Shown piece after piece: positions 5,129 through 62,024 of a stretch of DNA of 64,000 bases; position 1 is the stretch's first letter; every line of letters begins with the position of its first letter. Location: IMG/VR virus record IMGVR_UViG_3300027839_000007, positions 21,546 through 85,545 of that record; one strand, 5' to 3'. The position numbers were made by a program, and so were the translations under genes. This DNA comes from a virus. The notes under the pieces were generated by a model. It saw nothing but the letters and a program-made list of their open reading frames with translations. It made no database searches and was not told the origin of the DNA.

Positions 5129-7021
5129 ATGGCGGACGGCCTCTCATCCTTTTCTAACATGTCCAGTCCGAACGGACGCGGATCGGAGGGGTTTCCCGAC
5201 CCCTTCTGTGACGTTTCTTCGCTCTACATGCCGGATAGCATGGGTGATGCTCTCCGTTGGTGTGAATATATCTTCATGGCCAACGGTATGTATCGCCAGG
5301 CTTGCGACAGGATCGTTTCGTATTTCATCACGGAGATAGAGATACGCGGGGACGATAAGGATGAGAAGGACAAGTTCAAGTCATTTTTGGATGACACGCT
5401 GGGAGTTAAGAACTTGTTGCACACGGTAGGCATGGACTACCTGTGCTACGGTAACTCGTTCACCAGTATGCTTGTGCCCATCCGGCGCTACCTGTTTTGC
5501 CCCAAGTGCAAGATTGAGTTCCCGCTGCGCAAGATATTCAACGAGCCTGCATTCCAATTCAAGTGGTCGGGTTTCGCTTTTAATGCGCATTGTCCCAAGT
5601 GCAAGTACACCGGTGAGTGGAGGCACAATGATCGACGGTCCACCGAGGAGGAAGATCTCCGTGTACGGCGGTGGAGTGCGCATGATATGGAAATCCTTTG
5701 GGATCCACTCACTGATGATGCGAGCTATATCTGGAAGATCCCGGCTGAATACCGTCGGTTGATTACTGATGGCAACCTGTATCACCTTGAACGAGCAAAC
5801 TGGGAAATCATTGAGGCTGTCAAGAACCAGCAGGACCTCCGCTTCGACAACGACATTGTCTACCACATGAAGGAGAACGCACTCTCCGGTGTGCGTAATC
5901 GCGGATGGGGTATCAGCCGGGTGCTGTCCAACTTCCGCCAGGCGTGGTATGTCCAGGTATTACACAGGTACAACGAAGCCATTGCACTGGATTACGTGAT
6001 CCCGTTTCGGTTGATCACTCCCGCCGCGCGACCTGGTGCCGCGGGTGAGTTTAGTGATCCTGCGCTCAACGTGGATATGGGTGGTTTCGGCGCGCGTGTG
6101 CGTTCGATGCTCAAGCAGCGCAGGAAAGATCCCGCGGGGTGGCACACGCTGCCGTTCCCGGTGGAGTACCAGGCGCTGGGTGGCGATGCTACACAACTCG
6201 CACCGCAGGCGTTGATGGAGCAGGGTATGGATACCCTGCTGACATCAGTAGGTATTCCCGTTGAGTTGTATAAAGGATCACTGTCAGTCCAGGCAGCTCC
6301 CGCGGCGCTGCGCCTGTTTGAGTCCAGCTGGACCCACCTGGTGCATAACTTGAACAGGTTCCTACAGGACATCGTGGACAAGGTTGCTGAACTGATGTCA
6401 TGGGAGCCGGTCAAAGTGAACCTGGCCCGCGTGACTCACGCTGATGATCTTAACCGCCAGATGGCCAAGCTGCAGTTGATGATGGGTCAACAGGTCAGCC
6501 AGACCACCGGCCTCAAATCTGTTGGGCTCGATTTCGAGGAAGAGCAGAGGCGGAAGCTCGAAGAGGAGATGTTCATCGCCGAGGAAACTGCCACCATGCA
6601 GGAGCAGATGCAGCAGGCTGCGGCGATGGACGAGATAGCAGGTGGAGTGCCTCCTGCTGGCGGCATGATGGGCGGCGCTCCGGGTATGATGCCTCCTGGC
6701 GCACCTCCAGCTGCTGGCGGAGCCCCTCCGGGCGCGCCTCCTGCTGGTCCCGAGGGCGCGGCAGCGCAGCAGTTTGCGACCGCGCAGCCTACCCAGATGA
6801 ACAAGCCGACTACTCCGGAGGAAATGGTGGGACAGGCGCAGACCCTCGCGCAACAGATGATGTCACTACCATCATCGCAGCGGCGGTCTGAGCTTATCAC
6901 TCTCAAGAGAGTTGATCCCACCATGCATAGCCTTGTGACCAGTGCTATGGATGAGATTCGTCAACAAGCGCGCAGTATGGGGCAGCAGCAGATGCTTTCG
7001 CAGCAATATGGCCAGATGTAG
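5129..7021 (+). CDS. Portal-like protein with zinc-ribbon insertion, 630 aa
   Basis: Probable phage portal (dodecameric DNA-entry ring of the capsid). Evidence: length typical of portals, the early segment M-Y-R-Q-A-C-D-R-I-V (residues 54-63) like the opening helix of portals, a body of mixed helices ending with the conserved-style G-I-P-V-E-L near residue 376, and a long C-terminal helical region. Two CPKC pairs (C124, C127, C155, C158) form a treble-clef/zinc-ribbon-like insertion that ordinary portals lack. The C-terminal 150 residues are Met/Gly/Pro/Gln-rich, similar in flavour to other proteins in this window. The family call is by pattern, not alignment. Confidence 0.65.
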   Translation: MADGLSSFSNMSSPNGRGSEGFPDPFCDVSSLYMPDSMGDALRWCEYIFMANGMYRQACDRIVSYFITEIEIRGDDKDEKDKFKSFLDDTLGVKNLLHTVGMDYLCYGNSFTSMLVPIRRYLFCPKCKIEFPLRKIFNEPAFQFKWSGFAFNAHCPKCKYTGEWRHNDRRSTEEEDLRVRRWSAHDMEILWDPLTDDASYIWKIPAEYRRLITDGNLYHLERANWEIIEAVKNQQDLRFDNDIVYHMKENALSGVRNRGWGISRVLSNFRQAWYVQVLHRYNEAIALDYVIPFRLITPAARPGAAGEFSDPALNVDMGGFGARVRSMLKQRRKDPAGWHTLPFPVEYQALGGDATQLAPQALMEQGMDTLLTSVGIPVELYKGSLSVQAAPAALRLFESSWTHLVHNLNRFLQDIVDKVAELMSWEPVKVNLARVTHADDLNRQMAKLQLMMGQQVSQTTGLKSVGLDFEEEQRRKLEEEMFIAEETATMQEQMQQAAAMDEIAGGVPPAGGMMGGAPGMMPPGAPPAAGGAPPGAPPAGPEGAAAQQFATAQPTQMNKPTTPEEMVGQAQTLAQQMMSLPSSQRRSELITLKRVDPTMHSLVTSAMDEIRQQARSMGQQQMLSQQYGQM

Positions 7022-9181: not shown

Positions 9182-10366
9182 ATGAGCGACGACCTCAATG
9201 CTCAGGAACCTGAGCAAGATGAGTTTTCTGAGCCTGAGGCTATTGTAGACGACCTGGGACTGGACCTGGATATTCCTATCCCTCCGGAACCAGTGTCGTC
9301 TGGTGAGCCGAAGGACTCGTTCGAGTACGACGTTGCATTCAACCTCGCTTTTGTGGGTGTTGGCCAAGGCGGCTCTCGCCTGGCTGAATCCTTCTACAAG
9401 CTGGGTTATAAGCGCGTCGCTGCAGTCAATACGGCACTGCAGGATTTGAACTCGATCTCGATTCCCGAGCGTAACAAGCTCGATATCGGTGGCGGCGGGG
9501 CTGGTAAAGATCCGGCTGTCGCTGCTGCTGCTATCGCCGACAAGGATGAGGACGTTTACGACGTGCTCAAGCGCTCCTGGGGTCGTGACGTTGACTATGC
9601 AATTGTCTGTCTTGGCGCAGGTGGTGGTACCGGTGCTGGTGCAACTCCCAAGATCATCGAAGTAGCTCGTCGATTGATGGCGGAAAATGGTCGCCCGGTG
9701 CGTGTCGGTGTCATCGTTGCCCTGCCCAAGAACAGCGAGGGTCAGAAGCCAGCCAAGAATGCGCTCCACACGGTGCGCCAGCTGATCAAGCTTCGGCCCT
9801 CCCCGGCCATCGTTCTGGATAACGAGAGAATCAGGGAACTCTATGATCCCTCGCCAAGCAAAGAATACCCCCTGGCTAATAGCAGCATTGCGAAATATGT
9901 TCATCTCTTTAACAGGTTGGCCGCGCAAGACAGTGACCACACGTCGTTTGATCAGGCTGATCTGGGCCGGTTACTCGACTCCGGTGTCGTTGCATTCGGT
10001 GCCCAGCGCATCACGGCCTGGCAAGATGCAGCGGACATCTCACACGCTATTCGCCAGCAACTCAGGAAAAATATCCTGGCGTCTATCGACCTTACAAAGG
10101 GACAACAGGCGGGATTGATCTTTGTGCTGGGTAATGACGTGTACGACGACATCAGGTCATCCACCCTGGATCACGGCTTCGAGATGATGAACCGGATCCT
10201 TGCCGACGGGTCTACCGTGTACCGCGGTGTCTATAAAGGCAGCAGTGATGGCCTGACCGCGCTCAGTCTCGTGGCCGAGCTGCCCTGGCCCGCCGAGAGA
10301 TTGCACGAGCTTGCGCGACTCGGCGGAGTTGACAAGAAGACCTTGAAGGACTGGTTAGGTGTCTAG
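9182..10366 (+). CDS. Tubulin/FtsZ-superfamily GTPase, 394 aa
   Basis: Polymerising GTPase homologue. Visible motifs: phosphate loop T1 G-V-G-Q-G-G-S-R (59-66), A-A-V-N-T-A at 80-85, glycine loop at 103-108, tubulin signature G-A-G-G-G-T-G-A-G (145-153), and a T7-like F-D-Q-A-D-L in the second domain that keeps the Asp needed for GTP hydrolysis. The first 50 residues are an acidic extension absent from FtsZ. It lacks an evident FtsZ C-terminal tail peptide. Jumbo phages of the phiKZ group use PhuZ, a tubulin-like filament, to centre and move phage DNA and capsids; a similar role is plausible. Overlaps the next small gene by 8 bases. Confidence 0.9.
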   Translation: MSDDLNAQEPEQDEFSEPEAIVDDLGLDLDIPIPPEPVSSGEPKDSFEYDVAFNLAFVGVGQGGSRLAESFYKLGYKRVAAVNTALQDLNSISIPERNKLDIGGGGAGKDPAVAAAAIADKDEDVYDVLKRSWGRDVDYAIVCLGAGGGTGAGATPKIIEVARRLMAENGRPVRVGVIVALPKNSEGQKPAKNALHTVRQLIKLRPSPAIVLDNERIRELYDPSPSKEYPLANSSIAKYVHLFNRLAAQDSDHTSFDQADLGRLLDSGVVAFGAQRITAWQDAADISHAIRQQLRKNILASIDLTKGQQAGLIFVLGNDVYDDIRSSTLDHGFEMMNRILADGSTVYRGVYKGSSDGLTALSLVAELPWPAERLHELARLGGVDKKTLKDWLGV

Positions 10367-42897: not shown

Positions 42898-45800
42898 ATG
42901 CCAAGCGTTTCCCGTGCGCCGTCTGTATTAGCTGATTTGCCTTTGATCAAATCAACGGCACTGACGCCACCTAGCGATAGGCGGAATTTTGGCGATGCAG
43001 TGGCTACGCGAAACAACATTTTTCGCAACGCGCTCGATGCCGCGCAACTGCTGGAGCCGGTAACAAACGACAAGTACACGCTGAACTTGTCCGATGTCCG
43101 TTATGAGGATCCTGACAAGCACCCACTCTCGGCGCAGAAACAGGCCGTGCTTGAGGGTAGATCCATCGGACGCCGCCTTCGCGGTACGTGGAATTTGATC
43201 GATAATCTGACCAAGAAGCCCGTGAGTACTAGCCGTACCACGCTGGCAACGATTCCGTACATGACATCACGCGGTACATTCATTAACAAGGGAAACGAGT
43301 ACACCGTTTCACACCAGATGCGCCTCAAGTCAGGTGTGTACACCAGGGAAAAGGAAAACGGCGAACTGGAAGCGCACGTTAACGTGATGCCTGGGAAAGG
43401 TGTATCTCATCGTCTCTACCTGGATCCGAAGACGGGTGTATTTCGTTTTCAGGTTGGCCAGGCACGTATCCCGTTGATCTCTGTTATGCGCGCCATGGGG
43501 GCGAAGGATAAGCAGATTCGAGATGCGTGGGGAAATGATCTGACTGCGGCGAACATGCAGAAGGCTAACCCATCAGATTTGGCCAAGCTCTACCAGCGCT
43601 TGGTGCGCGGAGGGGTTGAAGAGGGCGCATCCGCACGATCGCAGGCAGTCGCTCAAGCCATGGCACGCATGGAGCTCGACCCCAAGGTAACCAAACGTAC
43701 GCTGGGCAAAGAATTCAAGAACGTGTCATTGGATAGTATTCTGGCGACCACTCGTAAGTTGTTATCTGTGCGACATCGTAATGATGCCAAGCAGTTGGCC
43801 ACGCTGGGCCTGGAGTCGCAGGATCCCGACGATCGTGACTCTTTGGCGTATATGCGTTTGCTTGGTCCCGAGGATATTATCTCGGAGCGGATAGGCAGGT
43901 CGGCGGGACTGCTGCGGCAGCTTTTGTGGAAAGCTACTCCGCGCGGTAATGTGGACAATATTTATCCCGGTGTGTTTGACAAGGCTGTGCAGGCTGCTTT
44001 GTTGAGTAGCGGTCTCGGTAATCTCTCCGAGTCCATTAATCCGATTCAGCTGTACGAACAACAGATCCGTGTCACCAGGATGGGCGAAGGCGGTATCCCC
44101 GGAATTGATTCCATTCCGGAGACTTCCCGGAACGTGCAGTCGTCTCATTTTGGGTTCATCGACCCACTGCTTACGCCAGAGTCTGGTCGCGCAGGTGTCG
44201 ACCTCAGGCTAGCGCGTAAGACCATGAAGGGTGCTAACGGTAATATTTACACCCAGGTGCGTGCACGTACGGGCAAGCTTGTCTGGAAATCTCCCGAAGA
44301 GCTGGCGGATGCCGTGGTTGCATTCCCCGGCGAGCTACGGCGCGGCGGGCGGAATGTTGCAGCCATGACTGACGGACGAACCAGGTTTGTTCCGCGGAAG
44401 TCAGTGGAGTATGAATTACCCCACTTCGAAAATGCGATGTCAGTTCTTGCGAACATGGTCCCGATGAAATCTGCCATGAAGGGGCAGCGGGTAGCTATGG
44501 CTGCGCGAATGCTGACGCAGGCACTTCCCTTGGACAATCGTGAAGCACCCCTGGTGCAATCAGGATCTCCGGATGAAGGTGGCTCATTCGAGAACCTGTA
44601 TGGCACCAAGCTTGGCGCGCTGCGTGCACATAACTCCGGGCGCGTGACACGGGTCACCAAGGATGCATTACACGTACAGTATGCTGATGGGGAAAAAGAT
44701 CGGATCGAGTTGTACAACAACTTCCCATTCAATCGTAAGACCTATTACCACCAGACTCCGGTGGTACGGGCTGGCGACGTGTTCAAGCAGGGCGAGCTGC
44801 TGGCCCGCTCAAATTACACCAATGACCAGGGTGATGCGGCACTCGGATTGAACACCCGCGTGATGTACATCCCGTTCCGTGGTTTGAACTTTGAAGACGC
44901 CGTGGTGGTCAGTGACTCTTACGCAAAACGGTTGTCTTCCCAGCACATGTACCAGCACAAAGTAGATCTAGACAAGGACAAGGATAGGCTGGGCAAGCAG
45001 ACGTTTATCAGCTTATTCCCCAACGAGTATAAGCGAGAACGCTTGGAAGGCATTGATAAAGATGGCGTCGCAACAATCGGAAGCACAGTCGAATACGGTG
45101 ATCCCCTGGTACTTGTTACGCGAAGACAAGAGCGGACATCCAATCAGGTCCATCGTGGTCGAAGACCGACGTATAACAACGCCGCAGTCGTTTGGAAACA
45201 CCACTCACAAGGAGTCGTTACTGACATTGGACGGGCTGACGGGCGAGTAGTGGTGTCAGTCAAGACGGCAGTGCCTGCCAAGCTGGGTGATAAGTTGAGC
45301 GGGCGGTACGGTGACAAGGGTGTCATTTCAGAAGTCATTCCCGACGATGAGATGCCTCGTGATGAAGAGGGACGTCCCGCGGAGTTGCTCTTGAATCCAC
45401 TTGGAATCATCTCTCGCGGTAACCCGGCGCAGGTTATTGAAGCCGCGCTGGGTAAGATTGCCAGCAAAACCGGGAAGCCTTATAAGATCGTTGACTTCGA
45501 AGAGATCAAGGATCTCACCGAGTTCGCAATTAAAGAACTGGATCGGCATGGCATCAGCGACCTGGAGACCGTGGTCGATCCAACGAATGAGCGCCGTATT
45601 CCTGGAGTATTGTCTGGTAATCGTTTCATCATGAAACTGCACCACACAGCTGAGTCCAAGGGCCAAGGCCGGAGTATTGGCAGTTACACGATGGAAGGTA
45701 TGCCCGCGAAAGGTGGCGAAGAAGGCTCGAAGCGAATCGGAATGCTTGATCTTAACGCGTTGCTTTCTCACGGGGCTACTGAGGTCATTCGTGATGCGCA

Positions 45801-47340
45801 TATGATTCGTGGGCAACGTAACCCGCAATTCTGGTCGGCCTACATGTCCGGGTACAAGCCAGCTGCCCCGAAGGTTCCGTTTGTCTACGAGAAATTTGTT
45901 CAACAGCTTCGCGCATCTGGTGTCAATCCGGTTCGTACTGGTCATCGTGTAAACGTCATGGCTTTGACGGACAAGGACATTGACAAGTTAGCCGGTAATC
46001 GTGAGTTGGAGAATCGTGACACCGTTGATTGGAAGGAAGGGCTGAAACCGCGCAAGGGAGGCCTCTTCGATGAACGCTTGACCGGTGGGCACAGCGGATC
46101 ACGCTGGAGCTATATCAGGTTGGCAGAGCCGATGCCTAACCCTGTCATGGAAGAGCCTGCTCGCGTGGTGCTCGGATTGACCAAGCCAGCTTTCATGAAA
46201 GTCTTGCGCGGAGAGGAAGAAATCAATGGAGTCACGGGACCGCAAGCGATCGGCCGCGCGCTGGATTCGATCAACATTAAACGAGAGATTGACCGCGCGC
46301 GGGCTGACATCAAGTCAGGCCGAAAAGCAGCGCGCAACAATGCTGTTAAGAAGCTGAGTTATCTGCGTGCAGCTGAGCGCATGAAGTTGCATCCGCGTGA
46401 CTGGATGCTGACCAAGGTTCCCGTGCTTCCTCCCGCGTTTCGGCCCGTGTCACTTATGAAGGGGTCAGGTACTCCGCTGGTAGCTGATCCCAACTACCTT
46501 TATAGGGAGTTGTTTGACGCCAATGTCAACTTACAGAAGATGCAGCAGCGGGTGTCAGATGTTGGGCATGAGCGAGAATCACTGTACACCGCATTCAAGG
46601 CTGTTACTGGCCTGGGCGATCCACTGAGCGCTGAGTTACAGGACAAGAAGGTACGAGGTATACTGTCACACGTGTTTGGAAAATCTCCCAAGTACGGTGT
46701 TGTGCAAAGACGTTTGCTGGGCGCGACCACGGATATTGTCGGCAGGGCTGCCATCACACCAAACCCGAACCTGAACATGGATGAGGTGGGTTTGCCAGAA
46801 GATAAAGCGTGGGAGGTTTACCGTCCCTTTACCGTACGATATATGGTTAGACGCGGTATGCCGCGGTTGCTTGCCGCGCGTGCTGTGCAAGAAAGATCTG
46901 AGAAGGCACGGGATGCGTTGCTGGCTGTCATGAAGGATAGGCCGGTTGTGATTAATCGTGCGCCAGTTTTGCATAGGTATGGGATGATGGCCGCCTTTCC
47001 GCGTATTGTGAAAGGTGATACCATGCAAATTAGTCCCCTGGTAGTCGGCGGATTTGGCGCTGACTTCGACGGGGACACAATGCAGTACCATGTACCCGTT
47101 TCTGATGAGGCGCGCGAGGAGGCAGTGGACAAAATGCTGCCTTCGCGTAACCTTCTATCAGCGGCTGATTTCAATGTTCACTATAAGCCTTCCCAAGAGT
47201 ATGTCGGGGGGCTTCATTCTGCATCAACACGTGTTGACGACAAAACTCCATCACGTACGTTCGCAACCAAGGAAGATGCCATCCGGGCGTACCGACGTGG
47301 CGAAATCGGTGTTGGCCAGCGTGTCATGGTCCTTGAATAA
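42898..47340 (+). CDS. RNA polymerase beta fused to N-terminal half of beta', 1480 aa
   Basis: Multisubunit-type RNA polymerase. Beta landmarks: protrusion motif R-G-T-F-I-N-K-G-N-E-Y near residues 125-135; N-F-E-D-A near 664; the active-site block K-L-G-D-K-L-S-G-R-Y-G-D-K-G-V-I-S near 795-811 with both conserved lysines; the beta C-terminal clamp-like D-L-N-A-L-L-S-H-G-A-T near 950. Without a stop the chain continues into beta': W-K-E-G-L-K-P-R-K-G-G-L-F-D-E-R (about 1044-1059), V-P-V-L-P-P-A-F-R-P, then R-P-V-V-I-N-R-A-P-V-L-H-R and the catalytic Mg-binding D-F-D-G-D at 1389-1393. It ends soon after S-Q-E-Y-V-G-G-L, before the bridge helix. It probably assembles with the 50980 product. Start at 42898 follows the previous stop by one base. 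Confidence 0.93.
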   Translation: MPSVSRAPSVLADLPLIKSTALTPPSDRRNFGDAVATRNNIFRNALDAAQLLEPVTNDKYTLNLSDVRYEDPDKHPLSAQKQAVLEGRSIGRRLRGTWNLIDNLTKKPVSTSRTTLATIPYMTSRGTFINKGNEYTVSHQMRLKSGVYTREKENGELEAHVNVMPGKGVSHRLYLDPKTGVFRFQVGQARIPLISVMRAMGAKDKQIRDAWGNDLTAANMQKANPSDLAKLYQRLVRGGVEEGASARSQAVAQAMARMELDPKVTKRTLGKEFKNVSLDSILATTRKLLSVRHRNDAKQLATLGLESQDPDDRDSLAYMRLLGPEDIISERIGRSAGLLRQLLWKATPRGNVDNIYPGVFDKAVQAALLSSGLGNLSESINPIQLYEQQIRVTRMGEGGIPGIDSIPETSRNVQSSHFGFIDPLLTPESGRAGVDLRLARKTMKGANGNIYTQVRARTGKLVWKSPEELADAVVAFPGELRRGGRNVAAMTDGRTRFVPRKSVEYELPHFENAMSVLANMVPMKSAMKGQRVAMAARMLTQALPLDNREAPLVQSGSPDEGGSFENLYGTKLGALRAHNSGRVTRVTKDALHVQYADGEKDRIELYNNFPFNRKTYYHQTPVVRAGDVFKQGELLARSNYTNDQGDAALGLNTRVMYIPFRGLNFEDAVVVSDSYAKRLSSQHMYQHKVDLDKDKDRLGKQTFISLFPNEYKRERLEGIDKDGVATIGSTVEYGDPLVLVTRRQERTSNQVHRGRRPTYNNAAVVWKHHSQGVVTDIGRADGRVVVSVKTAVPAKLGDKLSGRYGDKGVISEVIPDDEMPRDEEGRPAELLLNPLGIISRGNPAQVIEAALGKIASKTGKPYKIVDFEEIKDLTEFAIKELDRHGISDLETVVDPTNERRIPGVLSGNRFIMKLHHTAESKGQGRSIGSYTMEGMPAKGGEEGSKRIGMLDLNALLSHGATEVIRDAHMIRGQRNPQFWSAYMSGYKPAAPKVPFVYEKFVQQLRASGVNPVRTGHRVNVMALTDKDIDKLAGNRELENRDTVDWKEGLKPRKGGLFDERLTGGHSGSRWSYIRLAEPMPNPVMEEPARVVLGLTKPAFMKVLRGEEEINGVTGPQAIGRALDSINIKREIDRARADIKSGRKAARNNAVKKLSYLRAAERMKLHPRDWMLTKVPVLPPAFRPVSLMKGSGTPLVADPNYLYRELFDANVNLQKMQQRVSDVGHERESLYTAFKAVTGLGDPLSAELQDKKVRGILSHVFGKSPKYGVVQRRLLGATTDIVGRAAITPNPNLNMDEVGLPEDKAWEVYRPFTVRYMVRRGMPRLLAARAVQERSEKARDALLAVMKDRPVVINRAPVLHRYGMMAAFPRIVKGDTMQISPLVVGGFGADFDGDTMQYHVPVSDEAREEAVDKMLPSRNLLSAADFNVHYKPSQEYVGGLHSASTRVDDKTPSRTFATKEDAIRAYRRGEIGVGQRVMVLE

Positions 47341-47354
47341 CCTGGAGTAGACAA

Positions 47355-48125
47355 ATGGGCATCAATCCCGAATTGCTTAAGCTTGCTGCGTGGCGCTTGG
47401 ACCAGGACATGGAAAAGGATGCCGTGGTTCCGGCCCCGCCCGCAGGAGGTGCTCCTCCAATGGACCCGATGGCGGCTGGCGGCGCCCCTCCTCCCATGGA
47501 TCCGGCAATGATGGGCGGCGGCGGCATGCCTCCCATGGATCCGGCAATGATGGGCGGCGGCATGCCTCCTATGGATCCGTCAATGATGGGCGGCATGCCT
47601 CCCATGGATCCGGCAATGATGGGCGGCGCTGCGCCAATTGATGCGGACCAGATTCGTTCCATTATTCAAGAAGAACTGGCAGTATCTGGCGGCAAAGGTG
47701 GTTCCGGTAGTGGCGGCGGTACCAAAAAGTTTGATCCGGAACAATTGAACCGACAACTGCACACGATGAACAAGTTTCTCTCGTCTATCGCTAATGCGCT
47801 TGGCGTAGAGCTACCGCCTGAAGCGTTGCTTGAGCCACCGCCGGGAGAAGAGCAGGACCAAGCGGCCGCGCCGGAAGCGGCTGCGCCTCCTGCTGGTGGT
47901 GGAATGCCCGGCTTGTCAGGTGATGTGTACGCCGGAGCAGTTGATCCATCAGGTGGATCAGCCATCGACCCTATTCAGCCGGTTGACCCCGCTATGCCGA
48001 AAACTGCTGGGAGCATTGTTCCTAACAACTCGGTTGGACGCCCGGTGCGTAAGATTACCCCGGAGACGCTTCTGCAAAAGACCGCAGCGATTGCTGCGAT
48101 GGCACGACAACTGAACGCACGCTAA
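47355..48125 (+). CDS. Met/Pro/Gly repeat protein, 256 aa
   Basis: A short ordered N-terminus (about 25 residues) leads into repeats of P-M-D-P-A-M-M-G-G-G (residues 35-95), a helical domain (D-A-D-Q-I-R-S-I-I-Q-E-E-L), a Gly/Ser linker and an amphipathic C-terminal helix with L-Q-K-T-A. The Met/Pro/Gly motif also appears in the portal C-terminus and the scaffold-like protein. It lies between the two RNA polymerase genes; a partner or virion role is possible. Stop overlaps the next start by one base. Confidence 0.75.
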   Translation: MGINPELLKLAAWRLDQDMEKDAVVPAPPAGGAPPMDPMAAGGAPPPMDPAMMGGGGMPPMDPAMMGGGMPPMDPSMMGGMPPMDPAMMGGAAPIDADQIRSIIQEELAVSGGKGGSGSGGGTKKFDPEQLNRQLHTMNKFLSSIANALGVELPPEALLEPPPGEEQDQAAAPEAAAPPAGGGMPGLSGDVYAGAVDPSGGSAIDPIQPVDPAMPKTAGSIVPNNSVGRPVRKITPETLLQKTAAIAAMARQLNAR

Positions 48126-48367
48126 TGCCATTACGACTGGAAATACTGGATGACAAAGGAAAGCCCCATCATATTCATGCGGGGCGTGTTGTAATATACG
48201 ATGGTATCACTGACACACCCATTTCCATTGCACACGAGTTTTCGCCAGGCATCTGTTTTGCGACATGCGCTGGTAACGAAGATTTTGAAATAACACTCAA
48301 AGCTCTTGGTGTTGATCGTACTGTGATCGTCGAGAAGATTGACCCAGATAACCTACCGAGGATTTAG
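48125..48367 (+). CDS. Hypothetical protein, 80 aa
   Basis: A compact, beta-rich small protein with a His-rich loop (K-P-H-H-I-H) and Cys near residues 44 and 48. Starts on the last base of the preceding stop (TAATG). Unknown function. Confidence 0.65.
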   Translation: MPLRLEILDDKGKPHHIHAGRVVIYDGITDTPISIAHEFSPGICFATCAGNEDFEITLKALGVDRTVIVEKIDPDNLPRI

Positions 48368-48446
48368 CTAGCACAGATTGACTTGGTGCGGGGCAGGGAT
48401 AGCTCAGCCGAGGAATTTCATTCCTGGTACTTACATGGAGAGTTGT

Positions 48447-49019
48447 ATGCCAAGCCGGAACGAGCCCGCGATTAGTTCGTGTTGTTTTGACCTGGAATGC
48501 AGTGCATTAACAGCCGATTTTGGGATTATCCTGGTGGCGGTCATAAAGGGACCAAATGAAGATCCAGTTGTGTTTCGTCTGGATGAGATGAACAAGGACT
48601 GGAAGACGAAGCGATCAGATGATTCCACCGTGGTACGGGCAGTTGCAGACGAGCTTTCCAAGTACGACATCTTGATTGCACATAACGGAATTAATTTTGA
48701 TTTGCCATTTTTGCGTACTCGGATGCTCCATCACGGCATGAAGTCGTTCCCTGAGAAGAAGGTGATTGATCCGGTACAGATCGCGCGTAAGCGCCTTCGA
48801 TTGTCACGTAACACTCTTGCCAAGGTGGCTGGCATTTCAAAAGCAGGAAAAAAGTACTACACCGACGCTGAAGTGTGGATCAAAGCCACGCTCGACGGTG
48901 ACAGGAAATCAATGGACGAAATCGTAGAACATTGCAAGCAGGACGTGATTTTGCTTGAGCGTATTGTGCATCACATAAAGGACTACAGTCCTACCTTTAA
49001 TGCGTGGGGATCAGCCTGA
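48447..49019 (+). CDS. DnaQ-fold 3'-5' exonuclease, 190 aa
   Basis: RNase H-like exonuclease with the DEDD motifs: D15 and E17 (C-F-D-L-E-C), D85 in A-H-N-G-I-N-F-D, and D166 in E-H-C-K-Q-D-V. Resembles the stand-alone YprB/DNA polymerase B-type exonuclease subfamily. Start at 48447 with GGAGAG close upstream; ATGs at 48435 and further left are in frame but less favoured. Could act in proofreading or in DNA or RNA processing. Sits between the two polymerase genes. Confidence 0.85.
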   Translation: MPSRNEPAISSCCFDLECSALTADFGIILVAVIKGPNEDPVVFRLDEMNKDWKTKRSDDSTVVRAVADELSKYDILIAHNGINFDLPFLRTRMLHHGMKSFPEKKVIDPVQIARKRLRLSRNTLAKVAGISKAGKKYYTDAEVWIKATLDGDRKSMDEIVEHCKQDVILLERIVHHIKDYSPTFNAWGSA

Positions 49020-50968
49020 TGGCGCCACATATCAATTGGAAGTTGTTCGGCACCGCAGCCGAAAATGTTGAGAAGCAGGCTGCTGGTATGGCTGACATGT
49101 TTTCCAGTGCAATTAAGGGTACGGGTGCGGCGATGGGGGCGCCTGCCAGGCCCAGCGTGCAATCAAAGCTGGGTGTTCCAAGAGTTGCCGCACTTGATAT
49201 TGATAACACCCCTCCCCCACCTTCAGTCAAACCGATTGTTGTACCGCCTTCGACCGCACGCGTATCTGACCCCGTAGACCCCACCAGTCAACAGGGCCGT
49301 GTTTTAAGTTCACCTAGCCCTACATCCCCTGCAGCTCCTGCAGCTCAACCAGCACCTGGTGGTGGGCAGTTTCCGCCCGGCGGCGGGATTACAGGGCCTA
49401 CTTCGCAAAGCTTCATTGAGACCCTCAACCGGCCTCTGACACATAGCGAAGCTGACGGGCCAAACGCGTACGATGGGAGCCCTGAAGGAAATTCTATGGC
49501 CGCTGCCCAGGGCCTTGATCCCAGCAAACCGCCGATGGTCGGCCCGCAGGGCCTTCCGGGGCCAGTTCCTGGTGGCCCTGGCACCACTCCGGTTAATCCT
49601 GGTGTCCCCGCGCCAGCAGCACCTGGTGGCGGTGCAGCGCCCGCGGCTCCTGGTGGTGGCTATATCCCTGGCGACAACCCCCTCCCGAACAAGACTCCCG
49701 CACCACCTCCGGCTCCTGCTGAACCTCCTCCGGGCGTATCTCCTGAACAGGCCAAAACTGGCCCGGACGGGGTGGAGGGTACGTCCGACGATGACTTCTG
49801 GAAGAAGCAAAAATCGTGGTGGTCCGAGAGACCGCAGAGACCAAAAGCACCACAATCGCAGCAAGGCGGCGGATTCGGCCCCCAGATTATGCAGTACATT
49901 CGGAGTATGTTCGGCCCCGGCGGTGGCGGTGGCGGTGGTGGCGGTAGACTGCCGCAGTATCCGGGCGCATGGCCTGGCATGACGATGCCGCAGTGGCCAG
50001 GTGGCGGCGGTGGTGGTTGGCCAGGTGGCGGCGGTGGTGGTTGGCCGCAACAGCAACAGCAACAGCAACAGCCGTGGAACGCCAGCCGTGAAGATATTGA
50101 AGCGTGGATGAAGAATATGCCAACGCGCGGAGGCGGCGCTCCAGCTGCTCCAGCTGCGCAAGCTGCTCCGTCTAATGCACCGGGTGCTACTGCACCAGCT
50201 CCTCCAACACCCCCGGCGGCATCTCTGGCACCTGCTGCGACCACGTCGATGGCTGAGACGATGGGCGTGCAGCAGCCACCTAGTGGACGACAACCGTCAG
50301 GAACTCGGGTTCCAGGCGCCCCGGAAGGTCCGGAAGGTGGACGGATGGAAGATATGCCGAAACCCGTTGAGCCGGAAGGTTTTGGATTCCGGAGTGAAGG
50401 ACAGCCGCCTCCGGAAGCTCCGGGTCCTCTTGATCCAGGTGGCGAGCAGCAGCCACCGTTACAACCAGCCGCTGGCGGTGAGATGTTCGATGAAGGGTCC
50501 GAGGAGCTAGCACAAAATCCTCCGGGTTCCGCGGGCCCCGAGCAGATGCCAGCCAAACCAAAGCAATCTCCTTACTTCTATCAGAACCCACCTCGGACGA
50601 GCGGCATGGACCGTTTCTCCGAGGATACGGAAAGAGAAGAAGAGTACGGGCCGGGTTTCCCACGAGAAGTCTCAGACTCTTACAAGGACCAGGAGACTCC
50701 GGCATCTCCGCCAGCACCTCCCAAGCCCCGAGATCTTCCTAGGGATCAAGCGCAGTCTGGCGACCTAGGCGCAGCGATGAGGGAAATGGGTGAATCGCCG
50801 GACTCTCGTGAAAAACCACAAGGTGGTAGGGGTGGTCGCACGACCATGGACTACCGGCCCGATGAAGACGCGGGTGGTCGCCAAGAGCTCGGCGCTGATC
50901 CGAATCAGTGGAACGAGCAGCAATGGATGGATGATCTTCGAAAGGATCAGAAACGGAATCCTCTATAG
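49019..50968 (+). CDS. Gly/Pro/Gln-rich low-complexity protein, 649 aa
   Basis: Start at 49019 overlaps the preceding stop (TGATG), with GGGGA 8 bases upstream; a GTG at 49004 is in frame. A helical N-terminus with V-E-K-Q-A (residues 18-22) is followed by 600 residues of Pro/Gly/Ala/Gln-rich sequence, including two W-P-G-G-G-G-G-G blocks and a run of eight Gln. Likely disordered. Opposite-strand frames here are artefacts of the composition. Function unknown; possibly a virion component. Confidence 0.7.
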   Translation: MAPHINWKLFGTAAENVEKQAAGMADMFSSAIKGTGAAMGAPARPSVQSKLGVPRVAALDIDNTPPPPSVKPIVVPPSTARVSDPVDPTSQQGRVLSSPSPTSPAAPAAQPAPGGGQFPPGGGITGPTSQSFIETLNRPLTHSEADGPNAYDGSPEGNSMAAAQGLDPSKPPMVGPQGLPGPVPGGPGTTPVNPGVPAPAAPGGGAAPAAPGGGYIPGDNPLPNKTPAPPPAPAEPPPGVSPEQAKTGPDGVEGTSDDDFWKKQKSWWSERPQRPKAPQSQQGGGFGPQIMQYIRSMFGPGGGGGGGGGRLPQYPGAWPGMTMPQWPGGGGGGWPGGGGGGWPQQQQQQQQPWNASREDIEAWMKNMPTRGGGAPAAPAAQAAPSNAPGATAPAPPTPPAASLAPAATTSMAETMGVQQPPSGRQPSGTRVPGAPEGPEGGRMEDMPKPVEPEGFGFRSEGQPPPEAPGPLDPGGEQQPPLQPAAGGEMFDEGSEELAQNPPGSAGPEQMPAKPKQSPYFYQNPPRTSGMDRFSEDTEREEEYGPGFPREVSDSYKDQETPASPPAPPKPRDLPRDQAQSGDLGAAMREMGESPDSREKPQGGRGGRTTMDYRPDEDAGGRQELGADPNQWNEQQWMDDLRKDQKRNPL

Positions 50969-50979
50969 GTTAAGCACGG

Positions 50980-52833
50980 ATGCTTCAAACTACAGCCGGA
51001 CAACTTCTGGTAAACGAATTACTGCCTGAGGATCTCCGTGATTACAACCGGACCTTGGACAAGAAGGGTATCTCCGTACTTCTGCGCGGGATGGCTGACG
51101 GGTACCCGCAGCGTTATCGGGAACTTGTGAAAGAGCTGTCTGACGTTGGACGCGACGTGGCTTACTCAACTGGTGGCTTTTCATTTGGGTTGAAGCACCT
51201 GCGAAAGTCGCGCGCGGCTATCAACGCTTACGGTAAGTTATCGCTCAAGTTGTCGCAGATAGTTGATGATCCGCGACTGGACGATAAGCGCAAGGAAGAG
51301 GAAATTATTAAGGCAACTGCGAAGGCTGCGGAAAAGTTACCCGATGAGATTTACAACGAGGGTGTTGCAGCAGGTAATCCCTTGGCAGACCAGGTCCGGT
51401 CCGGTTCACGCGGTAACAAGAGTAACCTGCGCACACTGCTCGGCAGCGACGCGCTTTATGTGGACAACGAAGATAACGTCATCCCTGTACCTGTCCTCCG
51501 TAGTTATTCAGAAGGTTTGACTCCTGTAGAGTATTGGGCCGGTACGTTTGGCGCGCGTAAAGGAGTCATTGACGTTAAAACAGCAACCGGCGAAGCCGGT
51601 TACCTGGCGAAACAGCTTAACCAGATGACACACCGGCTCATCGTTACTGGATTGGATGGCAAAGGGAATCCAAACATCGGACTCCCAGTGGACGTTGACG
51701 ATAATGACAACGAGGGCGCGCTACTGGCCGCCAGCGCGGGTAGGTACAAACGTAACACCATCCTGACCCCCAAGATTCTTGCAGACATCAAGAGCCAGGG
51801 TCACGATCGCATCCTGGTTAGGAGTCCGCTGGTTGGCGGCCCCCTGGACGGCGGAGTATATGCTCGTGATGTCGGTGTTAGGGAAAGAGGTGGACTTGCC
51901 CCTGTTGGTGATTATGTCGGTATGGCTGCTGCACAGGCACTTTCCGAAAACCTTACGCAGGGGCAGCTCAGCTCTAAACATACAGGCGGGGTATCCGGCG
52001 CAGCGCAGGCAGTCAGCGGGTTCAAATACATCAATCAACTCGTGCAGGTTCCCAAGCATTTCCGCGCAGGAGCTACGCACGCCCAGTTAGATGGAAGAGT
52101 ACGGAAGATAGAAAAAGCGCCGCAGGGAGGGAATTACGTTTGGGTTAATGATGAGCAGCATTACGTGGATACTGGATTCGACGTTACGGTTAAAGTTGGG
52201 GACAACGTGGAAGCGGGCGACGTAGTGTCGAGTGGCATTCCCAACCCAGCGGAAATTGTGCGACATAAGGGCGTGGGAGAGGGCAGACAGTATTTCGTTA
52301 AGTCATTCGGCGACGCATATTCGGCGTCGGGGCTGGGGGCACACCGACGCAATATTGAGTTACTTGCACGAGGGCTGATTAATCACGTGCGCTTGTCAGA
52401 TGAAGTGGGGGATTACGTCCCTGACGATGTTGTGCCTTACAGTTCCTTGGAGCACATCTACAAGCCGCGTGTTGGGTCAAAGATCAGCAATCCAAGTTCA
52501 GCCAAGGGGCGCTATCTTGAGCGGCCCGTACTGCATTACTCAATTGGTACCAAGATGCGTCCGAGTGTATTGAAGGAGCTAAAGCAATTTGGGATAAAGC
52601 AGGTCGAGACGCATCACGCACCAGCCCCATTCCAGCCTGAGATGGTTAGAGCAGCTGCGAGCATTTCCTACGATCCTGACTGGATGACACGGATGCTGGG
52701 CTCAGGTCAGAAGAAAAGTTTGCTGACAGCGGTGCATCGTGGTGGGACTAGCACTACCGAGGGCACCAGTTTTGTTCCGGCGCTGGCTGCCGGGGATACT
52801 TTTGGACGTAGTGGTTTAAGTAAGGGTATGTAA
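50980..52833 (+). CDS. RNA polymerase beta' C-terminal half, 617 aa
   Basis: Continues the beta' subunit where the 42898 product stops. It opens T-A-G-Q-L-L-V-N-E-L-L-P-E ... L-D-K-K-G-I-S-V-L-L, matching the beta' region after the catalytic loop. Then F-loop-like G-S-R-G-N-K-S-N-L-R-T-L-L-G (near 137-150), bridge helix T-F-G-A-R-K-G and G-Y-L-A-K-Q-L (near 188-215), trigger loop V-G-M-A-A-A-Q-A-L-S ... K-H-T-G-G (313-337), a barrel-sandwich segment and a C-terminal tail like that of beta'. The trigger-loop His is kept (about 334), while Met932, Arg933 and Phe935 of E. coli numbering are Leu, Ser and Lys here. Confidence 0.93.
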   Translation: MLQTTAGQLLVNELLPEDLRDYNRTLDKKGISVLLRGMADGYPQRYRELVKELSDVGRDVAYSTGGFSFGLKHLRKSRAAINAYGKLSLKLSQIVDDPRLDDKRKEEEIIKATAKAAEKLPDEIYNEGVAAGNPLADQVRSGSRGNKSNLRTLLGSDALYVDNEDNVIPVPVLRSYSEGLTPVEYWAGTFGARKGVIDVKTATGEAGYLAKQLNQMTHRLIVTGLDGKGNPNIGLPVDVDDNDNEGALLAASAGRYKRNTILTPKILADIKSQGHDRILVRSPLVGGPLDGGVYARDVGVRERGGLAPVGDYVGMAAAQALSENLTQGQLSSKHTGGVSGAAQAVSGFKYINQLVQVPKHFRAGATHAQLDGRVRKIEKAPQGGNYVWVNDEQHYVDTGFDVTVKVGDNVEAGDVVSSGIPNPAEIVRHKGVGEGRQYFVKSFGDAYSASGLGAHRRNIELLARGLINHVRLSDEVGDYVPDDVVPYSSLEHIYKPRVGSKISNPSSAKGRYLERPVLHYSIGTKMRPSVLKELKQFGIKQVETHHAPAPFQPEMVRAAASISYDPDWMTRMLGSGQKKSLLTAVHRGGTSTTEGTSFVPALAAGDTFGRSGLSKGM

Positions 52834-53400: not shown

Positions 53401-55776
53401 ATGGCCAGGTCAGACGAAGGATCGATCGCCCACTGGCTGAATATTCTGCGTAGCAAGCAACTCGGTTTGGCTAAGACCGCCGAACTCGGTGGTGAAGGTA
53501 ACGACATACCCTTCGAGCAGGCTTTCTCTAACCTCGCGCATGCTTACCTGCGGGATAAGGCACCCAGCTTGCTGGACTACGAAGTTGGTTTTCAGCTGCT
53601 GGAGCGTAACCAGGACAACACCAAGGCCATTGGTGTGATGGCCTTCAAAGTCGGTCCCCAGTGGATTTATTCTCCAGTGTTCTTCCTGCGCGGGGAACTC
53701 AAGGGACACGAACTCCTGTACATGAAAGACAGGGATATGTTCGTGCCTCTGAAAGAGAACTGGTTGAATTACATCCTCAACAAGAAACCGAACGTGCTTG
53801 GTGACGGAGTTGATCGCAACTTGTCGCAGCTGGGTGTTACGTCGCCTGACCTGAGCCAGCTCGCATCCTCTCCGTACAAGCGCGCTGCTGCTTATCCAGA
53901 CTGGGTTGAGCAGGTGCTTCCTGTGTTTGCGTACATTGCGACGACGCCGCACAATCATCAGAGCAAGTTCAAAAATCTTCCTACGCTGCCTGACATGATC
54001 AAGGCGGCTGGCTTGCCTGGTGTGCAGTTCATGTGGAGTGTCGCCAAATCCTACCCCTCGGTGTTTAAGGCCGCGATTGATCTGCACGGCAATGCATTAC
54101 AAGAAGCCGTTGCACACGTACGGCGTGACGATGCAAGTGTTTTGCGCGGATCCGTAAAGACAGCCAGTTCCAAGCAGACTAGCGGCTCAGTGTTGCCCAG
54201 CCCGGTCACGCATCCAATTAAAACCGGCGCCTTGCGAATCATCACGTTTGATTACACTATCCAGAATGATTTACCCGCCGTCGATGACGATGACGATAAG
54301 CAGGACCTGCTCCGTGATGGCGTACTAATTAAAGACCAGCGGGAAGATGATGAAGTCTCTGTTGCTTATGCCACGAATGTAGAGAAGAAGCTGAGTAACC
54401 CATCTGAGAGCGGTCTTCACGACATGCTTTCCAAGACCGGCGACATTGAACGTTGCCTGGTTGTGCTTGGCCCCCGCGGCCCTAATGGTCGTGAGAACTT
54501 CAGTACCGTTGTACGCGTTGGCGAGGGTAAGAGCTGGTTGAACATTCATCCATCACATGTCTGGTCATTACACCAGGCTGACTGGGACGAGTATCGTAAA
54601 TGGTTTGAAGGTTTGTCTGGTTCTGACAGCTTGTCAAATGGTGCGACATACATTATTGTCGGCCCAAATGCTGCAGCCACGCTTCCGTTTGAAGTTAAGA
54701 AGTCCCTCGGCGACAGTAATTACGAGGTCAGGTTCGAGCGACATGCTAACAAGCATGAACCAGCACATAACACGGGCGCGCGACCGGACTCCAGTTATCA
54801 AAGTGACCGCGCGCATGGATATGATTCCTGGCGCGACGGGCAGCGTGTGCATCTGAATGCGAAGGATGGTAGCAAGCTGCGTTCATCTGGCGGTGATGTC
54901 TGGATCCCCGAGGGATTCAAGGTTATCAAGCTGAAGGATCCCCCGAAGTGGAAGCAGGATTTGCCCGACCACGAACACGACGGGCAGACTGATCCCGCGC
55001 CCATCCAACCCGGTAACTTGCTTGATGCCGAGCTGGCTATCATGGGTAAGACTGCTGAACTCAGCATCTATACTGATGGACTGGAAGTAGAGATCAACGG
55101 CAGGCGCATGCAGCCCACGCAGGCGCTCATTTCACTGGTGCGTGATCACGGTTTTCGTGAGCAGCAGTCACGTGAGTTGCTCAAGCGCGCGGAACGGCAG
55201 ACCAAGATCCGGTGCCGGGTGAACTATGCTGATTACGTGAAAAAGGCACAGGATCCTATGCTGGGCTTTGGTCCCGGCGCGCCTACCATCCCGGAACCGC
55301 CGCGAGGTTCCAACGATATCATGGGCGGAACTGTTCCGGCTATCTATCCACAAGAAACAGAAACGCCGGTTACCGGGATGACGATGGGGTCACCTACTGA
55401 TTATGACCTCACGGCTACCCCTGATCCGATGGCTATGCAGGCTGCTCAACAGGCTGCGCAGACTGGTCAGAAGGAAGTCTTTGATACTGCCATCATTGGC
55501 GGCATGCTCAAGGCAGTTCGACAGGATACGATGGTTGATCGTTATCTGTCTGACCTGATGAAGGGCATGGACCGTGTTGGTCGTATCTTGTTTATGTTCT
55601 ACTGGCACCAGGATGATTTTTCTGACCGTTACGGCAAGTCTGACCTACCTGAACTGGAAGACAGTTTGCGTAATTCGTTTGAAGCTCTGGGAGACCTTGT
55701 GCTATTCCTGAAGCAGAAGAGTATTGAAGCACCGGAAGATACTGGTGTGGATCTTTCAGAGGTAGCAGATAGCTAA
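53401..55776 (+). CDS. Large virion protein candidate, 791 aa
   Basis: No named family. An ordered N-terminal part of about 220 residues, then a mixed central region with a DDDDDK stretch (about 297-302) and a C-terminal helical domain (F-D-T-A-I-I-G-G-M-L-K ... R-V-G-R-I-L-F-M-F-Y-W-H) of a type I associate with structural proteins of large phages. It carries L-A-K-T-A, V-K-T-A and G-K-T-A, the recurring motif. A GGATGGAG site precedes the ATG. Possible head or tail component. Confidence 0.65.
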   Translation: MARSDEGSIAHWLNILRSKQLGLAKTAELGGEGNDIPFEQAFSNLAHAYLRDKAPSLLDYEVGFQLLERNQDNTKAIGVMAFKVGPQWIYSPVFFLRGELKGHELLYMKDRDMFVPLKENWLNYILNKKPNVLGDGVDRNLSQLGVTSPDLSQLASSPYKRAAAYPDWVEQVLPVFAYIATTPHNHQSKFKNLPTLPDMIKAAGLPGVQFMWSVAKSYPSVFKAAIDLHGNALQEAVAHVRRDDASVLRGSVKTASSKQTSGSVLPSPVTHPIKTGALRIITFDYTIQNDLPAVDDDDDKQDLLRDGVLIKDQREDDEVSVAYATNVEKKLSNPSESGLHDMLSKTGDIERCLVVLGPRGPNGRENFSTVVRVGEGKSWLNIHPSHVWSLHQADWDEYRKWFEGLSGSDSLSNGATYIIVGPNAAATLPFEVKKSLGDSNYEVRFERHANKHEPAHNTGARPDSSYQSDRAHGYDSWRDGQRVHLNAKDGSKLRSSGGDVWIPEGFKVIKLKDPPKWKQDLPDHEHDGQTDPAPIQPGNLLDAELAIMGKTAELSIYTDGLEVEINGRRMQPTQALISLVRDHGFREQQSRELLKRAERQTKIRCRVNYADYVKKAQDPMLGFGPGAPTIPEPPRGSNDIMGGTVPAIYPQETETPVTGMTMGSPTDYDLTATPDPMAMQAAQQAAQTGQKEVFDTAIIGGMLKAVRQDTMVDRYLSDLMKGMDRVGRILFMFYWHQDDFSDRYGKSDLPELEDSLRNSFEALGDLVLFLKQKSIEAPEDTGVDLSEVADS

Positions 55777-60575: not shown

Positions 60576-62024
60576 ATGATTAAAGTCATCACACCCAGTG
60601 CCTGGAACTTTGATGAGCCGATTGTGCAGATTGTGAAAGTGGCGAAGAGTGGCCTGCAGGGTGACGATCTTCGTTCTTTCATCAAGAGAGCTGGTCACAA
60701 GTTTGCCGACAAAGTCCAGAGCATTGACCTGTCTCCCGGCGAGGTTCCGGTGCACCTGATCGCACTCGGCGCTACCGAGTACTATGGCCCTAATCGTAAT
60801 GGCGATGGTTTCACCGAGGATACCTGCCGTAAGCACCACTCCTCTTTCCAGAAGAATGCGCACTGGTATCGGAATCACAAGAACAAGGATTCGAAGAAGA
60901 GCTACGGCATCGTTAAGTTGTCGCACTACAACGATGACATGAAGCGCGTTGAGCTCATCATTGCATTGAACTCAACCAAGGAAGCGGCCAAACGCAACGG
61001 CGGCCTGGTCGCTAGTGACGAGATGGAGAAGCTGGCGAAAGGTGATGACATCGCCGTGTCCATGGCTTGTCGTGTGCCTTTCGATGTTTGCAGTGGATGC
61101 GGTAACCGTGCCCGTAGTCGTAATGATTACTGCAATGGCGCACTATGTAAGCACGGTGGACTGAAATCAAACATTGGTACGGTACTGGAAGATGGACATA
61201 TTCTTCATGCCGACAACCCTGATCCTGATTTTTTCGATATCAGCCGGGTGTTTCGTCCTGCTGACAGGATTGCGTATACACTGGGGCGTATCGAGAAGGC
61301 AGCGGCCTCCGGACAAGTGATTTCCGGAGCCGAGTTGGCTGAAGAATTTGGATTGAATGCTCCTGCCGTACTTTCTATTGGCGCCAATAGAAATACCAAA
61401 ACAGCACAGCAGATACTCTGCGCGCACGAGCTGGCTGCGCTGGAGCAGGAGCTTCCTAGTGATGGTTACCTGTATAAGGAGGGGCGTTTGGCACGTATGC
61501 CCGCGCCTCCAGTCGTTCAGTTTGTAACTACTACGAAGCTAGCGCACCTGGTGCGTGCGCTAGCGCAGGAGGAGATTATACTCCCTGTCGAAGAATTTCT
61601 AACGATCGTGCACGGAGACACTGAGAAGTCGGCTTCGGTAGCGCCGGAAGTGGCAAATCAACTTCCCAGCATCTACACTCGCCTTACTAGCGATCGTCAA
61701 CAGCTGGAATCAGATGCAGCTAACAACCCCTATTTCACTGATTCGCTGGATACTCCCAGCGAATACCGTAAGTGGGCGGCGGCTATTGCTCCTGACTATT
61801 CGTACAGTCAAGAGCACGTGACCGTACGTTCACAGAGATCTGCATTGCGTGGTTTGACTAAGACTGCCAGTATTAGGCAGATCCCGGTTTCCACCAACAA
61901 CTCCGCAGAACAACTCGCACGGCAATATGCCTTGTATAAAATCGCCTCTCTGTTACAGTTTCCGGCACAGAAGGGCAGATCTGAGTTGACACTGTCTGCA
62001 TGTATAATGCAAAATTACATCTGA
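60576..62024 (+). CDS. Prohead-protease-like protein with Cys/His insertion, 482 aa
   Basis: The N-terminal half matches the serine prohead-protease pattern: G-P-N-R-N-G-D-G-F (71-79), then N-H-K-N with candidate catalytic H101 followed by G-I-V (111-113), then candidate Ser162 in D-D-I-A-V-S-M-A-C. Inserted after the Ser is a probable zinc knuckle C172-x2-C175-x10-C186-x4-C191-x-H193. The C-terminal half is helical, with T-E-K-S-A and L-T-K-T-A. Expected to mature the capsid before DNA packaging. Position directly before a scaffold-like gene and the capsid start supports the call. Contains palindrome copy 4. Confidence 0.7.
   Translation: MIKVITPSAWNFDEPIVQIVKVAKSGLQGDDLRSFIKRAGHKFADKVQSIDLSPGEVPVHLIALGATEYYGPNRNGDGFTEDTCRKHHSSFQKNAHWYRNHKNKDSKKSYGIVKLSHYNDDMKRVELIIALNSTKEAAKRNGGLVASDEMEKLAKGDDIAVSMACRVPFDVCSGCGNRARSRNDYCNGALCKHGGLKSNIGTVLEDGHILHADNPDPDFFDISRVFRPADRIAYTLGRIEKAAASGQVISGAELAEEFGLNAPAVLSIGANRNTKTAQQILCAHELAALEQELPSDGYLYKEGRLARMPAPPVVQFVTTTKLAHLVRALAQEEIILPVEEFLTIVHGDTEKSASVAPEVANQLPSIYTRLTSDRQQLESDAANNPYFTDSLDTPSEYRKWAAAIAPDYSYSQEHVTVRSQRSALRGLTKTASIRQIPVSTNNSAEQLARQYALYKIASLLQFPAQKGRSELTLSACIMQNYI
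61372..61393. promoter_or_regulatory. Palindrome copy 4 inside the protease gene (22 bp)
   Basis: A perfect 22-bp inverted repeat around TATTGGCGCCAATA within the coding sequence of the protease-like gene, where it encodes S-I-G-A-N-R. It is the only copy not in a gene gap. A binding site kept here would constrain the protein sequence. Confidence 0.65.
61987..62009 (+). promoter_or_regulatory. Possible promoter before scaffold/capsid genes
   Basis: TTGACA at 61987-61992 and TATAAT at 62004-62009 are both perfect consensus hexamers, but only 11 bases apart instead of about 17. The site is in the last codons of the protease-like gene and would lead into the scaffold and capsid genes. Function is uncertain because of the short spacing. 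Confidence 0.3.

What the first reader, a model, noticed from the sequence alone, without database searches (positions are those of the whole stretch)
42898..52833. Phage RNA polymerase with whole beta fused to half of beta', the other half encoded four genes away
Seen: one 1480-aa protein runs from the beta protrusion motif through the beta active-site lysines into beta' up to DFDGD, with no stop between. The bridge helix and trigger loop are in a 617-aa protein at 50980. Known: phiKZ- and AR9-type jumbo phages encode split beta and beta' pieces, and some bacteria (for example Helicobacter) fuse complete rpoB and rpoC. Inference: this pattern, a fusion across beta/beta' with the split inside beta', looks different from those I know and may define an unusual lineage.
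Basis: partly seen in the sequence, partly recalled or inferred. Interest (0 to 1): 0.92.

Follow-up and report, generated by a model that had tools for sequence, protein, structure and literature searches.

The report
Phage RNA polymerase with fused subunits
This virus of bacteria carries its own RNA-copying enzyme in which two normally separate large subunits are welded into one protein while the tail of the second comes from another gene, an arrangement conserved in a large group of phages, one of which is known to carry the enzyme inside its particles.

Summary
ORF 42898-47340 (1480 aa) is a complete beta subunit (E. coli beta 112-1338, lineage inserts missing) joined by about 12-25 residues to the N-half of beta' (E. 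coli 36-61 and 174-550, ending after DFDGD). ORF 50980-52833 (617 aa) is the rest of beta'. It is not an artefact: the beta/beta' junction lies inside one ORF in all 134 loci that cover it, including cultured Salmonella phage Arash and Vibrio phages, and beta'C was a separate ORF in all 112 loci holding both pieces. In L053 and L054 the gene is broken just upstream of the junction, and split-intein halves placed to restore the exact sequence sit at the break. In Arash the fusion homologue has the most spectra in the virion and beta'C is abundant; a sigma factor is also packaged. A homologue of that sigma is in 18 of 19 phage records; no alpha was found. Trees put the fused enzymes in one clan apart from bacterial and separate-subunit phage RNAPs. 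The split inside beta' is in the known cyanobacterial/phiKZ region; the fusion of whole beta to beta'N is the new part. Most likely: a virion-carried, zinc-free, alpha-less, sigma-dependent RNAP. New variant of a known kind.

The parts
42898..47340 (+). beta::beta'N fusion protein, 1480 aa
42898..45927 (+). beta part (aa 1-1010), equivalent to E. coli beta 112-1338 without the lineage-specific inserts
45292..45318 (+). beta catalytic lysines K799 and K807 in GDKLSGRYGDKG (E. coli K1065, K1073)
45928..46002 (+). beta/beta' junction (aa 1011-1035); nearly free of indels in 20 relatives (one residue missing in Arash and D69)
46003..47337 (+). beta' N part (aa 1036-1480), equivalent to E. coli beta' 36-61 and 174-550; zinc-binding domain missing
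47062..47076 (+). DFDGD metal-binding motif (aa 1389-1393), preceded by G where cells have N458
50980..52833 (+). beta' C part, 617 aa, equivalent to E. coli beta' 565-953 and 1190-1286
51523..51630 (+). bridge-helix region of beta'C (about aa 182-217)
51916..52047 (+). trigger-loop region of beta'C (about aa 313-356; H334 = E. coli H936)
5129..7021 (+). homologue of the Arash portal protein gp204
   Evidence: 4e-64
53401..55776 (+). homologue of Arash virion protein gp218, downstream of beta'C in both phages
60576..62024 (+). homologue of Arash virion protein gp222
   Evidence: 8e-36

Best explanation
The two genes encode the catalytic core of a phage multisubunit RNA polymerase made of two chains: beta covalently joined to beta'N (both double-psi barrels and the whole metal site in one chain) plus beta'C (bridge helix, trigger loop, part of the clamp). 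SHOWN here: sequence, homology, conservation of the fusion, loss of all cysteines, absence of a detectable alpha gene, presence of a sigma-70-family gene in nearly all relatives. SHOWN by others for the homologue in phage Arash: the fusion protein, beta'C and a sigma factor are detected in virions. INFERRED: in this phage too the enzyme is packaged late, injected with the DNA and, with its own sigma, transcribes the first phage genes; the covalent beta-beta' link replaces the assembly role of alpha and omega; losing zinc sites and rifampicin contacts makes it independent of zinc and of rifampicin.
For: Single ORF across the junction in 134 of 134 loci that cover it; beta'C a separate ORF in 112 of 112. 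Catalytic residues intact. Arash homologues gp206/gp216 have 3516 and 1210 spectra in purified virions, gp206 with 100% coverage; sigma gp10 has 467 (PMC10585845). Neighbouring virion-protein genes shared with Arash. Sigma homologue in 18 of 19 records, one read here with regions 2-3-4. No RpoA domain in any phage record, while controls ring. No Cys in 2097 residues and all four Zn2 cysteines replaced. L053/L054: N-intein at the end of one ORF and C-intein at the start of the next, placed so that splicing would restore GG..G|SKR..MLD. Both trees give the fused enzymes one clan, support 100.
Against: No biochemistry or co-fold. The AlphaFold models are moderate (pLDDT 73.5 and 66.5; pTM 0.60 and 0.41), so the assembled cleft was not shown. 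No sigma gene was found in this 85.5-kb record, which is a fragment. The Arash authors note that abundant intracellular enzymes could be carried over into purified particles. N458 is G and trigger-loop R933 is S, so activity could be altered. Omega was not searched.
Confidence: 0.75

Rival explanations
1. A non-virion RNAP made during infection for middle/late transcription, only carried over into particles.
For: The Arash authors raise carry-over themselves; phiKZ-type phages have both a virion and a non-virion enzyme.
Against: In Arash the fusion has more spectra than the capsid protein; the genes sit beside portal- and virion-protein genes; no second RNAP set was seen in the window or its record (one match).
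Confidence: 0.2
2. A frameshift or assembly error joins two neighbouring genes.
For: None found.
Against: The same junction, nearly free of indels, is in 134 loci from many samples and in cultured phages at about 31% identity.
Confidence: 0.01
3. A chain cut by a protease or internal start into ordinary beta and beta', so the fusion is only genetic.
For: Spectrum counts do not prove that the chain is covalent.
Against: Junction length is nearly fixed; in two relatives split-intein halves are placed to rejoin a broken gene.
Confidence: 0.06
4. An inactive relic or a transcription inhibitor that mimics RNAP.
For: G in place of N458, S in place of R933.
Against: Metal-binding aspartates, lysines and H936 are kept; strong conservation; recurrent intein invasion at conserved sites is typical of essential active enzymes.
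Confidence: 0.04

Closest known systems
Salmonella phage Arash (OQ632216) gp206/gp216 and Vibrio phages D69, D148, D181
   Same: Same beta::beta'N fusion (96% coverage, about 31% identity) with beta'C in a separate gene; shared neighbouring virion genes; sigma genes.
   Different: The fusion and split were not described; D181 (and, by its match, D148) has a homing endonuclease gene inside the fusion gene; only about 31% identity to the window.
phiKZ / AR9 jumbo-phage vRNAP and nvRNAP
   Same: No alpha; beta' split after the double-psi barrel; virion-carried set (PMC7598289).
   Different: There beta is itself split and not fused to beta', and no sigma recognisable by sequence is encoded; here beta is whole and fused, and a sigma-70 relative is encoded.
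mReC, multi-subunit RNAP-encoding Caudovirales (PMC7481178)
   Same: Phage RNAPs close enough to bacterial ones for alignment, in a clade of their own; two of three named examples come from a metagenome (3300017989) with numbering close to sources of our fused hits.
   Different: The paper's main text reports beta and beta' subunits and no fusion or split; its required NADxDGD motif is GADFDGD here; its capsid marker PF07068 was not found in 20 records.
Cobetia phage Carin-5, Yersinia YerA41, Rhizobium RHph_Y65, Vibrio Va2
   Same: Phage multisubunit RNAP; Carin-5 and YerA41 with recognisable beta and beta'.
   Different: beta and beta' are not fused (YerA41 beta' also cut in two); they fall outside the fused clan.
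Helicobacter/Wolbachia rpoBC fusions; cyanobacterial rpoC1/rpoC2
   Same: Fusion beta to beta' in the first; beta' split in nearly the same region in the second.
   Different: The first keep all of beta' in the chain; the second keep beta separate, and gamma runs about 67 residues further.

Membership tests
Cellular-type multisubunit RNAP core (beta/beta') | Two double-psi barrels with DxDGD in beta' and two lysines in beta | tested here: met
Cellular-type multisubunit RNAP core (beta/beta') | alpha subunit encoded with it | tested here: not met
   PF01000 absent from 19 phage records, positive in controls and in the two bacterial MAGs
phiKZ/AR9-type phage RNAP | beta' split after the DPBB | tested here: met
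phiKZ/AR9-type phage RNAP | beta encoded as two or three pieces | tested here: not met
   whole beta in one ORF
phiKZ/AR9-type phage RNAP | no recognisable sigma encoded | tested here: not met
   sigma homologue in 18 of 19 records; own fragment negative
Virion RNAP | enzyme present in the particle | not testable with these tools
   met for the Arash homologue by published mass spectrometry; not for this phage
mReC | NADxDGD motif in a protein of at least 800 aa | tested here: not met
   window has GADFDGD; L006, L038 and L047 have NADFDGD
mReC | major capsid protein PF07068 | tested here: inconclusive
   0 of 20 records, but nothing rang in the controls either
mReC | TerL PF03237 | tested here: inconclusive
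   only Arash over the cut-off; two others weak
mReC | RNAP clade distinct from cellular RNAPs | tested here: met
   bacteria only; mReC sequences themselves were not available
Natural rpoBC fusion (NF007172, NF011417) | complete beta and beta' in one chain | tested here: not met
   beta'C on another ORF; 308 and 269 bits against cut-offs of 5372 and 4632
Cyanobacterial gamma (rpoC1) | separate gamma ending about position 619 of TIGR02387 | tested here: not met
   fused to beta; match ends at position 552
crAss-like phage RNAP | single chain with no detectable sequence similarity to cellular beta/beta' profiles | tested here: not met
   strong similarity to cellular profiles

The most novel reading that the evidence does not exclude
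A large, so far unnamed clade of tailed phages packages a complete sigma-dependent RNA polymerase that needs neither alpha, omega nor zinc, because beta and beta'N are one chain; the link is under such selection that where the gene broke, a split intein splices the protein back together.
Probability: 0.5. Interest if true: 0.75.

Novelty: new variant of a known kind. Interest (0 to 1): 0.62.

Why it matters
It would be a minimal, naturally tethered version of the cellular transcription machine: two chains plus sigma, without the alpha scaffold that cellular enzymes need. That makes the open question of how multisubunit RNAPs assemble without alpha directly testable in a cultured phage (Arash), and adds a subunit arrangement to the debate on whether phage RNAPs descend from cellular ones. 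It also suggests a class of phages that may start transcription without host RNAP yet use a sigma-70-like factor.

Tried and rejected
Assembly error: rejected by 134 of 134 loci and cultured phages. Membership of phiKZ/AR9 type: rejected on whole beta and on sigma. Sigma in this record: none found, but it is a fragment. Structure: two folds gave moderate models; Foldseek hits to bacterial beta' (E 4e-25) and beta (E 7e-41) had low TM-scores (0.3-0.45), so they add little to sequence evidence. No co-fold was possible. Literature searches for a described fused beta/beta' phage RNAP of this form found none in the open-access library. The moraphage lineage (PMC12619734) was checked and lacks RNAP.

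Full report
OBSERVATION. The window is bases 21546-85545 of an 85.5-kb virus record. ORF 42898-47340 (1480 aa) and ORF 50980-52833 (617 aa) are open and read as described. A profile of 20 relatives aligned to E. coli subunits puts the first protein on beta 112-225, 420-933 and 1049-1338, then on beta' 36-61 and 174-550, and the second on beta' 565-953 and 1190-1286. The unaligned stretches of E. coli beta correspond to its lineage-specific inserts (own knowledge). beta is complete to within a few residues of its end, and beta' begins some 12-25 residues later; the beta' zinc-binding domain is not there. NCBIfam rpoC is covered to position 533 by one protein and from 548 by the other, so together they give one full beta'.

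RESIDUES. All main catalytic positions are kept: beta R678, D814, K1065, K1073, R1106, K1242; beta' R352, R425, D460, D462, D464, Q504, R731, Q929, H936. Departures: N458 to G (some relatives N), M932 to L, R933 to S. The four Zn2 cysteines are G, G, Y and D, and neither protein has a single cysteine. Rifampicin contacts differ (Q513N, D516E, H526Q, S531T, L533M, I572D). N458 contacts the incoming ribose in cellular enzymes (own knowledge), so its loss is worth a test.

REALITY AND SPREAD. tblastn of cultured phages finds the fusion in Salmonella phage Arash and Vibrio phages D69, D148 and D181; beta'C is about 4.7 kb away in Arash and 0.6 kb in D69. IMG/VR gave 59 loci, then 478 candidate relatives of which 80 were kept, and further sets. 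Of 138 loci examined, 134 have the junction inside one ORF; three others are cut by the contig end and one (L071) is a different protein. beta'C was a separate ORF in all 112 loci where both were seen, median 1.07 kb downstream, upstream in L153. Two relatives were found on long contigs (183 and 199 kb) in MAGs assigned to Thermoguttaceae and Alphaproteobacteria, a weak hint at hosts.

BREAKS THAT SPARE THE FUSION. L053 and L054 have beta and beta' on two ORFs broken within the end of beta, upstream of the junction; the first ends in an N-intein (CF..., TRNHE motif) and the second starts with a C-intein ending VSN|S, so that splicing would restore ...G|SKR..MLD, the sequence found uncut elsewhere (Pfam gives only a weak intein hit). 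In a sub-clade near Arash (L130, L132, L135-137, L141, L142, L146) beta' is broken a second time at about E. coli beta' 180, leaving its start on beta; the second ORF has its own Met in most cases, so beta' there is in three parts. Many relatives carry full inteins at conserved sites. That the junction is never broken suggests that the tether matters; this is inference.

CONTEXT AND MECHANISM. Arash virion mass spectrometry (PMC10585845): gp206 3516 spectra and 100% coverage, more than any other protein; gp216 1210; sigma gp10 467; capsid protein 1333. The window shares with Arash the portal and two virion proteins, gp218 and gp222, lying downstream of beta'C. A homologue of gp10 is in 18 of 19 phage records, all but this fragment; the copy in G001 reads as a sigma-70 protein with regions 2 to 4. 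No alpha gene was found in any phage record while controls ring. I therefore propose a packaged two-chain core plus sigma that starts phage transcription. Packaging in this phage, the role of the tether, and zinc and rifampicin independence are inferences.

TREES. beta'N+beta'C (837 columns) and beta (944 columns), LG+F+R4, unrooted, without archaea: all fused enzymes on one side, bacteria and the separate-subunit phages (Carin-5, YerA41; for beta' also RHph_Y65, Va2, NVP1031O) on the other, ultrafast bootstrap 100 in both. This fits a single origin of the fusion. Long branches call for caution.

STRUCTURE. AlphaFold2: beta'C mean pLDDT 73.5; fusion residues 331-1480 66.5. Foldseek matches bacterial beta' and beta respectively but with low global TM-scores.

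COMPARISON. The beta' cut is in the region used by cyanobacteria and by phiKZ/AR9 enzymes, though the cyanobacterial gamma runs about 67 residues further. What differs from phiKZ/AR9 is an unsplit beta fused to beta'N, and an encoded sigma. The mReC paper (PMC7481178) describes a phage RNAP clade that may overlap this one; its text mentions no fusion of its own enzymes and membership could not be settled.

Noticed in passing
L033-L036, L042, L051, L055, L062, L105, L111, L117, L152, L153; beta'C in L060, L062, L070, L083, L116, L118: Many inteins (about 300-490 aa, one or more per protein) inserted at conserved sites of the phage RNAP, some with LAGLIDADG domains; L062 carries several in each subunit.
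   Followed up: partly
L053:9959-15239, L054:9980-16824: Split-intein halves bridge a break in the fusion gene: a possible natural trans-spliced RNAP.
   Followed up: partly
L130, L132, L135-L137, L141, L142, L146: Sub-clade near Arash with beta' in three parts: a second break at about E. coli beta' residue 180.
   Followed up: partly
L004:6467-7417 (Vibrio phage D181): Homing endonuclease gene interrupts the fusion gene at query residues 523/531; the near relative D69 is uninterrupted.
   Followed up: no
window 9182-10366: Tubulin/FtsZ-family protein (Pfam 2.5e-16), weak match to phage PhuZ; found in only one relative locus (L102).
   Followed up: no
window 12391-14241: Protein with a SET-domain match (2.5e-07) in its N-terminal third.
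   Followed up: no
window 48378-49019: RNase H-like / PolB-type exonuclease gene between the two RNAP genes, shared only with L080.
   Followed up: no
L071:5840-9937: In a proteobacterial MAG, one ORF of 1366 aa or more carries an InPase domain and beta' N motifs: an RNAP part inside what looks like a polyvalent protein.
   Followed up: partly
window 47062-47076 and relatives: Universal NADFDGD is GADFDGD in the window and most relatives (also GM-, TM-, AA-), at a residue that contacts the NTP ribose in cells.
   Followed up: partly
phage records OR844998, OR846602: Records filed as phages appear to hold bacterial chromosome pieces with ordinary rpoB/rpoC: contamination in the phage collection.
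   Followed up: no
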